From Hyaloscypha bicolor E (taxonomy: Eukaryota; Ascomycota; Leotiomycetes; Helotiales; Hyaloscyphaceae): 64,000 bases of DNA. The translations under genes were made by a program, and so were the position numbers. Under the pieces are notes generated by a model that saw nothing but the letters and a program-made list of their open reading frames with translations, had not been told where the DNA came from and made no database searches. This document shows, in pieces, positions 19,611-50,299 of this stretch; the first letter of the stretch is position 1; each line of letters opens with the position of its first letter. The stretch is from assembly GCF_002865645.1 (NCBI RefSeq), contig NW_020194684.1:6115952-6179951 (forward strand), in the 5' to 3' direction.

Positions 19611-20929
19611 CTATGACTGTGATTTGATCATGAAGATCTGCGCGGTTTTAGTTCTCGGAAGAAATGATACGAAGGGAAATTTTACCTGATTCAATGACGC
19701 CACATCCATATGCGCCAGCCGTTTCTGAGCAATGTTTCGTGCTCTAACGGCGTGTCTACCCTGCATCATAGGCGTAGAGCGACCACTAGACTCGACTGTA
19801 AGAGGTGTTGAAGGGGTGCTGTCCTTGGTCGAAGTCTGAGTAGATTCCGCAGATTCAGCATCGTTCTCAGCCTCTTTGGCCTTGTCTCGTTTCGACTTCT
19901 TCTTTCTCTTTGACTCCTTTTCGGCCATCTCCACATCAGAAGTTGCCTTCTCTTTCTTCTCTTTCTTTTCCTTCTTCCGCTTCTTGATCTCGATATCGTC
20001 CTCACTTTCCTCCGACACCCGCTGCTTTCGGTCCTTCTTGGACTTCTTTTTCGAGATCTTCACCTCCCCCATTGCCGCAGCAACTTCTTCAGCACCGTCA
20101 AGAGTAGTTGATGACTTCCGCCTCCTCTTCGATTTCTTGACTTTGATAGCCACAACCTCGGCGTCGGTCTCCAGCACCTCTATTTTCCGCTTTTTGGATT
20201 TTCGGGGCTGGGGCTCTACCACAGCAGCTTCATTGTCTGATTTCGATGAAGAACAATCAGTTGAGTCGTCAATACTTCCTGCGGCAAGCCTCCGTATCCT
20301 CTCCGCCTCCGAATCAATCAAGTGTTGAATCTTATCACCCTAGTAATGAGTGTCAGCAATTGCCCGATACAGATTGATTTGGGCAAACTGGGATATTGTC
20401 TTGGGAGAATTCTATGAGACCATTTAGAATAGGAAAGGGTTATCTCCTAACACTTACAATCAGAAAGCCCCCAGGGACGAAACGAATACTCCCCCATCTC
20501 CGCTCCGTATAAATCGCCCTCTTCAAATCTTCCCTCGATTTCTGCTCTCTCTCCAATTCTTCCTCGTCTTTCCCGTTCAATCGCCCTAGTAAATTTGTGA
20601 ACGCATCAAGGCCTGTGCATTCTCCATGGCCTACACCGCTTCCAATCTTCGCCCCAAGGCCGAGATTATCGTCCTTGACGGAGACTCGGATATGTGATGC
20701 GTTGGCAGCGGTGTGGAATTCAGCGTGGGCAGCATTCTTGGCTCCGAGGTAGTCGCCTGGCTGCCAGCCTTGGGAGGTCATAATCTTGAGGCCGAAGGAT
20801 TCGGTGTCGTTGGTCCATTTTGTGTTATTTGGATCGTGGGACAATTTCATTCGCCTGCAGATTTCTTGTTAGCATTATATTGAACCAAGGATCATGGGAG
20901 AATTACTTCTTGGGCGCTGCGAGTCCCAT
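19611..20929 (-). CDS. PXR1: PXR1/PinX1-like G-patch nucleolar protein
   Basis: Four exons (20929-20907, 20854-20458, 20339-19686, 19637-19611) give 366 residues. The start MGLAAPKKRMKLSHDPNNTK is the conserved beginning of PinX1/Pxr1. The G-patch follows (FGLKIMTSQGWQPGDYLGAK, then SHIRVSVKDDNLGLGAK), and then the GLDAFTNLLGRLNGK box. The C-terminal half is a Lys/Glu/Ser-rich nucleolar-type tail with long KKRKKEKKEKKEK runs. The last 27-nt exon restores the family C-terminus SLN-x-IFMIK, which is missed without splicing. The protein acts in rRNA and snoRNA maturation with the helicase Prp43, and PinX1 also inhibits telomerase. It is divergent from the coiled-coil gene at 21178 (248 bp apart). 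Confidence 0.92.
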
Positions 20930-46578: not shown

Positions 46579-47295
46579 ATGCTAAACGTATCCACCGGAG
46601 GCAGACGTATATCCCCACGCATCTCCTGCTACTTCTGTAAGATTGCCTCTACCCATTCAGGCAGGGTGCAAATCCGTCGGCTCGAGGTTGAGCGCAAGTT
46701 TTTGGTCACACCAATTGCCGTCTCCTGTTTGCGTTCCAATAGCGGAGGCTCAAGGTTCAAGAAACACGAGAGCCTCGGAAAGCAGACTACGCAAGATACC
46801 TACTACGACCGAAACGGTTTGCTCTTTTCAAAAGGGGTTTATATTCGTCGGCGGAATGGGCATTGGGAGGCGAAGATCCGCACGGGCGGCGATTTCATCA
46901 ATTCAGCTTTCACGGAGGTCGATGGTAACAATGCAGTAAAGGAGGTCGTCGAACAGAACTTGACTGTCTCTGCAGATGGACTTAGCATCGAAGAAATGCT
47001 GGAGCCTTGCGCCGATTTTGTCACGGAACGAGAGTCCTGGATAATGGACGGCAGGTTCAAGGTTGACGTCGACACAACAGATTTTGGACATATGGTTGGA
47101 GAGGTGGAGTTGACAGGAACCCTCTGGTCTGCTAATGGTGAACATGGCGGGGAAGAGGAGGAAAGGGAAAAGTTGAAGCAAGAGATGGACCAAGACATCA
47201 AGGCATTCATGCAATCTTACCCACAAGTATTCCCTGCTGGACGGCCCCTTGGAAAACTGAGTGCCTACTTCCGCTGGATCAGAGGCAGAATGTGA
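46579..47295 (+). CDS. CYTH-domain triphosphatase (thiamine triphosphatase-like)
   Basis: A single exon encodes 238 residues, close to the 230 of animal thiamine triphosphatase. The CYTH signature ExExK is present as EVERKFLV at residues 36-43. Tunnel strands follow: DTYYDRNGLLFSKGVYIRRR, HWEAKIRTGG, then TERESWIMDGRFKVDVDTTD and VGEVELTG; the C-terminus KLSAYFRWIRGRM fits the family. CYTH enzymes hydrolyse tri- or polyphosphates (thiamine triphosphate, inorganic triphosphate) with Mg2+. The first 30 residues are basic and lack acids (GGRRISPRISCYFCKIAS), possibly a mitochondrial presequence. It converges on the viperin gene, with only 153 bp between stop codons. The natural substrate here is not known. 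Confidence 0.88.
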   Translation: MLNVSTGGRRISPRISCYFCKIASTHSGRVQIRRLEVERKFLVTPIAVSCLRSNSGGSRFKKHESLGKQTTQDTYYDRNGLLFSKGVYIRRRNGHWEAKIRTGGDFINSAFTEVDGNNAVKEVVEQNLTVSADGLSIEEMLEPCADFVTERESWIMDGRFKVDVDTTDFGHMVGEVELTGTLWSANGEHGGEEEEREKLKQEMDQDIKAFMQSYPQVFPAGRPLGKLSAYFRWIRGRM

Positions 47296-47448: not shown

Positions 47449-48585
47449 TCACCATTCAAATTCCTTTGCCTTGTTACTACTCGAGCCGCAACCCGCTTCG
47501 CTCACTTTAGTCCAATCATAAAATCCGCCTCTCTCCACGAACGCAGTCCGCTCCCACCTCACTTGTGTCATCGCCTTCCTCACGCCAACATCTAGGATAC
47601 TCTCACTCGCTTTCTCCTCCCCATCGCCTTTGTCCAGAAAGCGCATATACTCGTCCAAAATCAAATAACTCCCTCTCATTATCTCGTTGCTCTCCGGCAC
47701 GAAACATTTCAGGTGCTTGTGCCTGTCGCAGAACGCTTTCCACTGCTCGTTGCTTACGAGAAACGAACGTGCATCGCGCTTGCGCTGTTCATTATCGTTT
47801 TCGCCGGCGACGATCAGGCACTGGAAGACCTTCCATCGAAAGGGCTGAAACCGTGCAATCGGACAAGTCATATCTTCATCCCAGTTCAGGCTACATACAA
47901 CGGTATTGACTTTGAACTTGATGCCGAAGTGTCGACACCAACTGGCGACTTTCGTTAGTTGCTCCACGTTCTCTCCACTCCTGCCTCTTCCGATCTTGAT
48001 ATTTGTCTCTGGGTCGAACGAATCGCCTGGGTAACGGGGGAGTTAGTATTACTAGATTAAGATTGTTTCGGGAGAGGACATTGTCTTAGGAGAAAGCCAT
48101 GAAACAGCCCGTAATAGGAAAGGGTTTCTCCCCCAACACCTACAGGATATAGCAAGGATGTCAATGAACGCGGCGTTCTCGCGCAAGAACTTCTTGGTGA
48201 TCTTCGAGCCGTTCGACACGATACTTATACTTTCTATCCCTAGTTCCTCTTTCCCATAGCGGAGAAGTTCACGCATGAACATGGGATATAGGAAAGGCTC
48301 ACCGCCTGCGAAATTGAGCTTCTTCATCCCGGCCTCTTTCAAGAGCTTCATTCCGCACTTGGCCTTGTCCAGTGGGAGGATGCTGGAGGTCTTCTCGGTG
48401 TGGAAACAGAAGCCGCATTCATAATTGCACTTGCGGGAGAAGTGGTAGTTAACCGAGACTGGAGTTTCGGCTCCGCTCATTTGCTGAAGTTGATGGAAAT
48501 GGTATAAGAGGCAGGCAGCTATTATGCAAGAAGCTCCCGTGATACCAGTGACGATCGGACTGCTGAAGAGAATTGCAGACAGCAT
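47449..48585 (-). CDS. Viperin (RSAD2-like) radical SAM enzyme
   Basis: Exons 48585-48144 and 48026-47449 give 339 residues; human viperin has 361. Residues 4-30 are a hydrophobic N-terminal segment (likely membrane anchor). The [4Fe-4S] motif is CNYECGFC at 53-60 (CX3CX2C), followed by GGEP at 94-97 and VSNGS at 123-127. Exon 2 gives CDSFDPETN, RWKVFQC, VPESN, SYLILDEYMRFL and SILDVGV, all viperin-specific words, and the RGGFYDW end. Animal viperin converts CTP to the chain terminator ddhCTP; prokaryotic and fungal relatives act on CTP, UTP or GTP, and the substrate here is unknown. The intron splits the ISCDSFD motif. A short Ser-rich insertion precedes the final EFEW. No lesion is seen. 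It is head-to-head with the nucleotide kinase at 49545. Confidence 0.95.
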
Positions 48586-49544
48586 AATAAAGGTTAGGGT
48601 TGTTTTCTAGACCAATTTTCGAAGGGAATATTTTCAATTAATCAAGAATCCACTTGGTCAATCTCCTGGTCTGTCATTGAGTGACTGGTCTCTGTTGAGT
48701 GCTGGCTTGTACCGTGTGCATGGCTACTTTGGTGTGCCCAGTCATTCGAGTGCGCCTGGTTATAGGAGGTGTTGAAGTCTTGAGCTTGTTAAAGTGTGGG
48801 GCTATAGCAAGACAGTAATCCAGACGCAAGCCATGAAAAGGCTTGCTCCGCCCCCACAGACCCGTGCGGCTCGGCACACTTCTGGATTCGAAGCTCCTTA
48901 GTCTGTGTAACTTCACAAAGTTTGGAGAAACAAACTGCCACGTGGGCTGCTGATACATCCTCCTCAAAAAACCAAGCATCTCTCACCGAACACGTGCTCA
49001 CGAATCGGATTCTTGCCATGTTCCACATCTTGACGAACGTTATGCACGATACAGTAGATACAGTAAGAGCTCACGCCAATCTCCCGTTTCCATCACTAGT
49101 GCTGCGGGAGGCCTCCTGGAGGCCTCCAGTTGCTGTACCAGATCGAACGAAGATGAGACAATCGACTCATGTTCAAATGTGATAGGGAAGCGGATAGGTT
49201 GCCGCTGAATGACCAAACCGAACGGGCTCTTGAGGTGGTATGTCTGTCTGCAACGATCGTTCAATGCGGCTTTCTCATCGGGCGATTCGGCATCATCAGA
49301 TCACGGCAACCCAGTATATTGAAGCATCAATCATTATCTGATCTATTCAACCTTTAAACAAACAATGTCAGCTCCGCCGAGCCACATCAACCGAATCACA
49401 GTCCTCCCAGGATCGACGATCTTAAACCCCTCCATAATTCTAGTAACCTTGGGTGATCCAGCAAATGTACGGTGAGAAGGATCACATGCCCGCCACTGTG
49501 TATAAACTTTAGTCCACTTCAGGTATAGAAAGAGCTCAACAACC
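48586..49544. other. Shared intergenic region of viperin and kinase genes
   Basis: A 959-bp divergent spacer with no convincing coding sequence. It contains the palindromic elements listed at 49107-49129 and is the only place for both promoters. Confidence 0.5.
49107..49129. promoter_or_regulatory. Two palindromic GGAGGCCTCC elements
   Basis: GGAGGCCTCC occurs at 49107-49116 and again at 49118-49127; the second sits inside a perfect 14-bp palindrome CTGGAGGCCTCCAG (49116-49129). Such adjacent perfect palindromes in the middle of a divergent promoter region could be binding sites for a dimeric transcription factor. No specific factor is claimed. Confidence 0.35.
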
Positions 49545-50299
49545 ATGCACCGGCAGATCTCTGTCATCTTTATCCTCGGTAGGTTCTCTTAACCTCCTCC
49601 GCTAAGTATATTGAGCCTCAAGATTCTAAGTTCTCTCTAACAGGACCCCCTGGAGCGGGCAAAAGTACTCTAGGCGCACTTCTCACGGAGAACTTTCCCG
49701 TGCAACATATCTCGGTTGGCGACCTCCTACGGCGCATCATTAAGAATGATACTACCCATCCCCAAGCAGGAGCCCTCGCATCTATGCTAAACAAGCAGGA
49801 ACTCATTGATGCAAAGGTTCTGGTTCCTATCCTAAGGAACGCGCTAGAAGAGTTAGAGTCGCGAGAGCAGGGGAGGAAAGTAATGCTAGTGGATGGATTC
49901 CCGCGGAACTTGGCACAGCGGAGGGAGTTCGAAGAAGCGGTAAGCATGCTCGCGAGCAAGCTAGCAGCGGTGTTGTGTATATACTACTCTATGTCCTAAC
50001 GTAGTAAGCAGTTTGCAGAACCCATACTCGTTCTCTTCTTCAATTGTCCTAAAGAAATCGCAAAGCAGCGGTATCTTACGCGCAACTTGGAAGGGCGGGA
50101 GGCAGATAACGAGGCAATGTTCGAGAAAAGATATAAGGAGTATGTGCAAGAGAATGAGGAGATCGCTCGTGAATATCGGGAGAGGGGACTCTTAGTGGAG
50201 GTTGATACTGGTAATGGAATGGAGGAGTCGTGGGAGGAGCTCTTCACCAGACTAGGGAAGGACTCCAAATGGACGGATGTTATTGGAAAGAGTGTTTAG
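49545..50299 (+). CDS. UMP/CMP-kinase-like nucleoside monophosphate kinase
   Basis: Exons 49545-49578, 49644-49939 and 50012-50299 give 205 residues, the size of yeast Ura6. The P-loop GPPGAGKS is at residues 12-19, the NMP-binding helix reads ISVGDLLRR, the core motif DGFPRN at 95-100, and the lid and Arg-rich part NLEGREADNEAMFEKRYKEY at about 135-154 match adenylate/UMP-CMP kinases. The P-loop has Ser after Lys instead of the usual Gly, and the NMP domain is diverged, so it is probably not the housekeeping Ura6. The role expected is phosphorylation of a pyrimidine monophosphate. Its start lies 959 bp from that of viperin on the other strand, so they may be co-regulated. Confidence 0.88.

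What the first reader, a model, noticed from the sequence alone, without database searches (positions are those of the whole stretch)
47449..50299. Fungal viperin head-to-head with a dedicated-looking nucleotide kinase
Seen: a full-length viperin (CX3CX2C at residues 53-60, GGEP, VPESN, SYLILDEYMRFL) and, 959 bp away in divergent orientation, a 205-residue kinase with GPPGAGKS, VGDLLR and DGFPRN. Known: vertebrate RSAD2 and CMPK2 are head-to-head neighbours and co-induced by interferon; prokaryotic viperins often sit beside nucleotide kinases; viperins make ddh-nucleotide chain terminators. CMPK2 belongs to the thymidylate-kinase family, whereas this kinase belongs to the adenylate/UMP-CMP kinase family. 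Inference: a convergently assembled ddhNTP antiviral (for example anti-mycovirus) module in a fungus, in which the kinase feeds or recycles the pyrimidine nucleotide.
Basis: partly seen in the sequence, partly recalled or inferred. Interest (0 to 1): 0.92.

Follow-up and report, generated by a model that had tools for sequence, protein, structure and literature searches.

The report
Fungal viperin-kinase-triphosphatase gene cluster
A fungus carries a probable antiviral enzyme (viperin) beside a non-housekeeping nucleotide kinase and a triphosphate-cutting enzyme, and pieces of the same trio sit together in other fungi, which points to a small three-gene system for making and perhaps neutralising chain-terminating nucleotides.

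Summary
In detail: a 339-residue viperin and a 205-residue adenylate-kinase-family enzyme start 959 bp apart in divergent orientation. The genome has a separate, canonical Ura6. Kinase and viperin homologs share contigs in other fungi: consecutive locus tags in three named genomes, one scaffold in a fourth, six unnamed contigs. The kinase is not CMPK2-like, falls below the UMP-CMP kinase cut-off, and lies in a fungal clade apart from Ura6.

Its homologs share contigs with viperin and/or the kinase in several fungi; in Chlorociboria all three are consecutive. It has tyrosine where most distant fungal CYTHs have tryptophan, and a basic N-terminal extension. A degraded second viperin-kinase pair lies about 263 kb away.

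Best reading: a ddh-nucleotide module with its own NMP kinase and a triphosphatase that limits the product, perhaps in mitochondria.

The parts
46579..47295 (+). CYTH (thiamine-triphosphatase-like) gene, 238 aa, one exon, convergent with viperin; basic N-terminal extension of 34 residues, core E36-x-E38-x-K40, Y88-x-R90-x-R92, E175-x-E177
   Evidence: Pfam PF01928 34.6 bits, cut-off 23.2; homologs; motifs; model and fold; only CYTH match in the genome
47449..48026 (-). viperin exon 2
48027..48143 (-). viperin intron, a multi-copy introner-like element
   Evidence: splice sites; copies
48144..48585 (-). viperin exon 1: hydrophobic N-terminus and radical-SAM CX3CX2C
48586..49544 (.). 959-bp region between the two divergent starts, partly kept (75-77%) in a degraded second copy
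49545..49578 (+). kinase exon 1
49644..49939 (+). kinase exon 2 (P-loop, GDLLR, DGFPRN)
50012..50299 (+). kinase exon 3 (lid and C-terminus)

Best explanation
The locus is a three-gene ddh-nucleotide module of Pezizomycotina. Viperin, probably membrane-held by its hydrophobic N-terminus, converts a pyrimidine NTP to the 3'-deoxy-3',4'-didehydro chain terminator. A dedicated, divergently transcribed ADK-family NMP kinase raises or recycles the nucleotide towards NDP. The CYTH enzyme removes the gamma-phosphate of (ddh)NTP, most plausibly as a brake or antidote, perhaps in mitochondria, where the single-subunit RNA polymerase would be at risk. Shown: gene structures, family membership, kept motifs, CYTH fold, separation of the kinase from Ura6, and (indirectly) physical linkage of pieces of the trio in several fungi. 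Inferred: all activities, substrates, location, co-regulation and antiviral role.
For: Sixteen contigs carry homologs of two or three of the families, eight of them in named genomes; Chlorociboria has CYTH, viperin and kinase at B7494_g4877/4878/4879; Xylogone has all three on one scaffold; one unnamed 5070-base contig has all three. All 12 viperins so linked fall with the window in one clade of 24 rows (98/94), and none of the 26 rows outside it is linked as far as the three lists show (50 rows). The kinase is extra to Ura6 and in a separate clade (100/100; 100/98) with catalytic residues kept. CYTH keeps ExExK, YxRxR and ExE, and its model fits thiamine triphosphatases best. A degraded second head-to-head pair exists. 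Passages of PMC11249213: viperin activity depends on CMPK2, and 15% of bacterial viperin genes lie next to a CMPK2-like kinase.
Against: Linkage elsewhere was inferred from equal contig lengths, shared sources and locus tags, not from DNA; orientation is unknown outside this genome. Trichothecium has viperin and kinase on different contigs; Hyaloscypha variabilis and Hyaloscypha sp. PMI_1271 have kinase and CYTH on different contigs. Named CYTHs of the same clade (Truncatella, Geoglossum, Venustampulla, Halenospora, Helicocarpus, Apiospora) and the Hymenoscyphus viperin showed no listed partner. Pseudogymnoascus VKM F-3557 has kinase and CYTH at consecutive tags with no viperin number between. 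The CYTH is the only one found in this genome and could be a housekeeping enzyme. The presequence signal is weak. Nothing biochemical was tested.
Confidence: 0.58

Rival explanations
1. Only viperin and kinase form a functional pair; the CYTH is the fungus's ordinary triphosphatase that happens to be their old neighbour.
For: It is the only CYTH match in the genome; several CYTHs of its clade show no listed viperin or kinase.
Against: CYTH shares contigs with viperin and/or kinase in 9 contigs, in two classes, and differs from most distant fungal CYTHs at the Trp-53 position.
Confidence: 0.24
2. A small natural-product cluster: the trio makes a secreted ddh-nucleoside against competitors, with CYTH on the path from triphosphate to nucleoside and the kinase for re-entry.
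For: Fungal 3'-deoxynucleoside clusters with a kinase and a phosphohydrolase exist (cordycepin; recalled).
Against: No exporter or other biosynthetic gene was found among the flanking ORFs scanned with Pfam, which gave proteasome and MutS domains or nothing (only some flanking ORFs of a spliced genome were scanned).
Confidence: 0.08
3. Thiamine triphosphate metabolism: an adenylate-kinase-like enzyme makes ThTP and the CYTH removes it, with viperin a neighbour for another reason.
For: A passage of PMC8615392 names cytosolic adenylate kinase as one source of ThTP; the CYTH has a ThTPase-type motif and fold.
Against: Conserved linkage to viperin; Tyr in place of Trp at the thiazole-stacking position.
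Confidence: 0.06
4. The linkage outside this genome is an artefact of matching contig lengths.
For: Two of 19 matches were clearly coincidental and one is doubtful.
Against: Seven named genomes have tags one or two numbers apart, with matching organism names on both proteins.
Confidence: 0.04

Closest known systems
Vertebrate RSAD2 (viperin)-CMPK2 pair
   Same: Viperin with a nucleoside monophosphate kinase as neighbour (orientation in vertebrates recalled; functional dependence in passages of PMC11249213)
   Different: Kinase here is ADK family (94.1 bits, cut-off 26.8) and misses the thymidylate-kinase cut-off (22 bits of 27); a CYTH triphosphatase is a third partner here
Prokaryotic viperins with kinases (PADLOC pVip models)
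   Same: Viperin homology (238 and 216 bits); kinase beside 15% of bacterial viperin genes
   Different: In six prokaryotic viperin-like loci no ADK or CYTH neighbour was seen, reading ORFs of 100 aa or more by eye, some with short flanks; a small sample
Viperins with solved structures (6b4c, 7n7i, 9dfu, 9dgw)
   Same: Same family over most of the protein (363-375 bits)
   Different: No kinase or CYTH partner in those records; that 6b4c is from Trichoderma virens and that the fungal enzyme uses UTP is recalled
25-kDa thiamine triphosphatase (CYTH family)
   Different: Tyr at the Trp-53 position, basic N-terminal extension, linkage to viperin

Membership tests
Viperin | radical-SAM CX3CX2C motif | tested here: met
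   C53, C57, C60
Viperin | NCBIfam NF038283 above cut-off | tested here: met
   255.5 bits, cut-off 180
Viperin, TIGR04278 type (model kind 'exception') | TIGR04278 above cut-off | tested here: not met
   385.4 bits, cut-off 450
Viperin | ddh-synthase activity | not testable with these tools
   needs an enzyme assay
CMPK2 (thymidylate-kinase family) | Pfam Thymidylate_kin PF02223 above cut-off | tested here: not met
   22 bits, cut-off 27; but the precomputed domain lists of two orthologs, P0123 and P0133, name PF02223 beside ADK
ADK-family NMP kinase | PF00406 above cut-off with P-loop, GDLLR, GFPR and lid arginines | tested here: met
   94.1 bits, cut-off 26.8; invariant residues in 19 aligned rows
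UMP-CMP kinase subfamily (Ura6) | TIGR01359 above cut-off | tested here: not met
   124.4 bits, cut-off 207.6; own Ura6 241.6; separate clade
CYTH / triphosphate tunnel enzymes | PF01928 above cut-off and ExExK | tested here: met
   34.6 bits, cut-off 23.2; E36, E38, K40
Thiamine triphosphatase | (W/Y)xRxR motif | tested here: met
   Y88, R90, R92; rule from passages of PMC8233210
Thiamine triphosphatase | Trp at position 53 as in the mouse enzyme | tested here: not met
   Tyr
Thiamine triphosphatase | specific hydrolysis of ThTP | not testable with these tools
   needs an assay
CyaB-type class IV adenylyl cyclase | HF motif before ExExK and second Glu of ExE replaced | tested here: not met
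   no HF before E36; E175 and E177 intact (rule)

The most novel reading that the evidence does not exclude
A three-gene fungal immune cassette in which viperin makes a chain-terminating ddhNTP, a purpose-evolved ADK-family kinase supplies or recycles its nucleotide, and a purpose-evolved CYTH triphosphatase, retuned at the stacking residue (Trp to Tyr) and sent to mitochondria, destroys the terminator where it would poison the mitochondrial RNA polymerase: a built-in antidote of a kind that I do not recall for any viperin system.
Probability: 0.27. Interest if true: 0.86.

Novelty: new variant of a known kind. Interest (0 to 1): 0.68.

Why it matters
Fungal defence against mycoviruses is known mainly as RNA interference (recalled). 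A conserved viperin cassette with its own kinase and a triphosphatase would be a defined enzymatic system to test, and would show that viperin has paired with a kinase of a different family than in vertebrates. The CYTH partner turns the question of how a cell that makes a chain terminator spares its own polymerases into an assay on one protein.

Tried and rejected
Kinase as the only Ura6: rejected; the genome holds a canonical Ura6 (L001 1420-2076) and long-lid adenylate kinases.

Horizontal transfer of the cluster between classes: suggested by Chaetothyriales and Trichothecium viperins lying among Leotiomycetes, but with named taxa alone the four Leotiomycetes form one group (support 42/66, neither shown nor rejected). 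Not claimed.

Mitochondrial targeting of CYTH: 33 of 44 scored extensions have no acidic residue and all have 3-9 basic ones, but the hydrophobic moment of the window extension is not above shuffles (p 0.20). Only suggestive.

Contig matching: of 19 shared lengths I dropped 902 (too short for both genes) and 68117 (Fusarium circinatum against the bacterium Mobilicoccus), and set 1199729 (Exophiala; 31% and 38% homologs) aside as doubtful. Only the best 120 hits of each search (of 2408, 608 and 133) are listed, and only the longest contig of each cluster is given, so counts are lower bounds and absences mean little.

A shared right end of three kinase remnants at window 50312 looked like a mobile-element boundary; the three share sequence beyond it with each other, so it is where the window copy diverges.

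Prokaryotes and viruses: of the 80 loci listed (136 confirmed), I took the first six, L023-L028, as viperins by identity and span (L028 partial); no ADK or CYTH neighbour was seen by eye. Two viral-contig scans found no relative.

Trees left rows out: viperin 50 rows (window, listed ranks 1-25 and chosen named ones, over 300 aa, plus P0049), kinase 47 rows (under 150 aa left out), CYTH 68 rows (under 195 aa left out, and beyond P0307 only chosen named ones).

Papers: ten searches. Listings only, except passages of PMC11249213, PMC8233210, PMC8615392, PMC4641920 and PMC10732462. None of the listed titles and abstract starts was on a fungal viperin-kinase or viperin-CYTH cluster; most subscription papers are not held. 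I recall that Shomar et al. [quoted passage not shown] only its reference line was seen) reports genetic linkage of eukaryotic viperins with nucleotide kinases; a version looked up by a DOI typed from recall was not held, so the kinase half may be in print.

Full report
What is there. On the minus strand, exons 48585-48144 and 48026-47449 encode a 339-residue viperin; on the plus strand, exons 49545-49578, 49644-49939 and 50012-50299 encode a 205-residue kinase. The start codons are 959 bp apart. It is a CYTH protein of 238 residues in one exon (Pfam PF01928, 34.6 bits, cut-off 23.2).

Families. The viperin passes NF038283 (255.5 bits, cut-off 180) but not TIGR04278 (385.4, cut-off 450); its best PDB matches by sequence are viperins. 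The kinase is ADK family (94.1 bits) and misses the thymidylate-kinase cut-off (22 of 27 bits), so it is not a CMPK2 homolog by this test, although the precomputed lists of two orthologs (P0123, P0133) name that domain as well. It is nearest to the UMP-CMP kinase model but well under its cut-off (124.4 of 207.6), while the genome's own Ura6 passes (241.6). In trees the cluster kinases and other fungal kinases (Aspergillus, Thermothielavioides, Sphaceloma, Echria and others) lie apart from the own Ura6 and from the adenylate kinases included (100/100 with 47 rows; 100/98 with 25 rows). P-loop Lys, GDLLR, GFPR and lid arginines are kept. Base specificity is not decided: the Asn of GFPRN varies among cluster kinases, while a Gln four residues on is invariant, also in Ura6.

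Second refutation, no conservation of the pair. I compared the 120 listed hits of each protein search (viperin, kinase, CYTH) by longest contig, source and name. Nineteen contig lengths are shared between lists. I dropped 902 and 68117 as coincidences and set 1199729 aside as doubtful. Sixteen remain, eight with organism names. Chlorociboria aeruginascens: CYTH, viperin and kinase at B7494_g4877, g4878, g4879. Chaetothyriales CBS 132003 and CBS 135597: kinase and viperin at consecutive tags (DV737_g4495/4496; DV738_g2028/2029). CBS 134920: viperin and CYTH (DV735_g4948/4949). Cudoniella (G7Y89_g8269/8271) and Pseudogymnoascus 05NY08 (VF21_09929/09931): kinase and CYTH two tags apart, the gene between not seen. 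Pseudogymnoascus VKM F-3557: kinase and CYTH at consecutive tags (V490_00332/00333), so no viperin number between. Xylogone: all three on one 3.95-Mb scaffold, distance unknown. The other eight contigs are unnamed; one of 5070 bases holds all three. Chlorociboria, Cudoniella, Xylogone and Pseudogymnoascus are Leotiomycetes and Chaetothyriales are Eurotiomycetes. Against: Trichothecium roseum (Sordariomycetes) has viperin and kinase on different contigs; Hyaloscypha variabilis and Hyaloscypha sp. PMI_1271 have kinase and CYTH on different contigs; Diaporthe citri and Monosporascus ibericus have other-clade viperins and distant CYTHs on different contigs; and several CYTHs of the near clade (Truncatella, Geoglossum, Venustampulla, Halenospora, Helicocarpus, Apiospora) and the Hymenoscyphus viperin showed no listed partner. 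Equal lengths and tags are indirect evidence, and orientation in those genomes is unknown.

Phylogeny. In the viperin tree (50 rows) all 12 linked viperins and the window fall in one clade of 24 rows (98/94); none of the 26 rows outside it is linked as far as the lists show. In the CYTH tree (68 rows) all nine CYTHs of the sixteen counted contigs fall in a clade of 57 rows (100/96), which also holds the partnerless ones named above; the doubtful Exophiala CYTH lies outside. Transfer of the cluster between classes is possible but not shown.

Second copies. At G000:C70:5898821-5900445, about 263 kb from the window pair, lies a degraded copy of the same head-to-head arrangement: viperin pieces of residues 1-81 and 95-123, a kinase that has lost an internal stretch, and an intervening region kept at 75-77%. 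Further kinase remnants lie on C27, C2, C22 and C51, each flagged with at least one stop codon. So the pair has been copied as a unit at least once in this lineage, and kinase copies decay.

How it most likely works. Viperin makes a ddh-pyrimidine triphosphate (family knowledge; a passage of PMC11249213 limits eukaryotic viperins to CTP or UTP derivatives). The kinase supplies or recycles the nucleotide. CYTH, a triphosphatase with an aromatic stacking residue, cuts (ddh)NTP as a brake or as a mitochondrial antidote. Shown here are genes, motifs, fold and linkage; all activities are inferred.

Known and new. Viperin-kinase partnership is known in vertebrates and for 15% of bacterial viperin genes, and I recall a report of kinase linkage in eukaryotes that I could not read. 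What none of my ten paper searches listed is an ADK-family kinase or a CYTH partner in a fungal viperin cluster. I file it as a new variant of a known kind.

Noticed in passing
window 48027-48143: The only intron of the viperin gene is a multi-copy, introner-like element: 35 of the 46 genome matches to the cluster region are copies of it at 76-98% identity (a lower bound), and five of five fetched copies are 117 bp with the same GT...AG ends.
   Followed up: partly
G000:C70:5898821-5900445 (L014): Degraded second head-to-head viperin-kinase pair about 263 kb from the window pair.
   Followed up: partly
G000 C27:222373, C2:1156300, C22:431976, C51:345084: Kinase-only remnants; on C27 a piece of the viperin-kinase intergenic region lies beside it.
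   Followed up: partly
G000:C76:9497-9729 (L115): 80% match to the viperin-kinase intergenic region, with no viperin, kinase or CYTH match in the fetched locus.
   Followed up: no
window 20391-20457: Weaker partial copy (74%, 68 bp) of the introner-like intron in the same window.
   Followed up: no
P0142, P0143, P0145, P0150, P0152, P0155, P0158: The kinase clade reaches Aspergillus, Sphaceloma, Thermothielavioides, Echria and Apiosordaria; whether these too sit beside viperins could not be seen.
   Followed up: no
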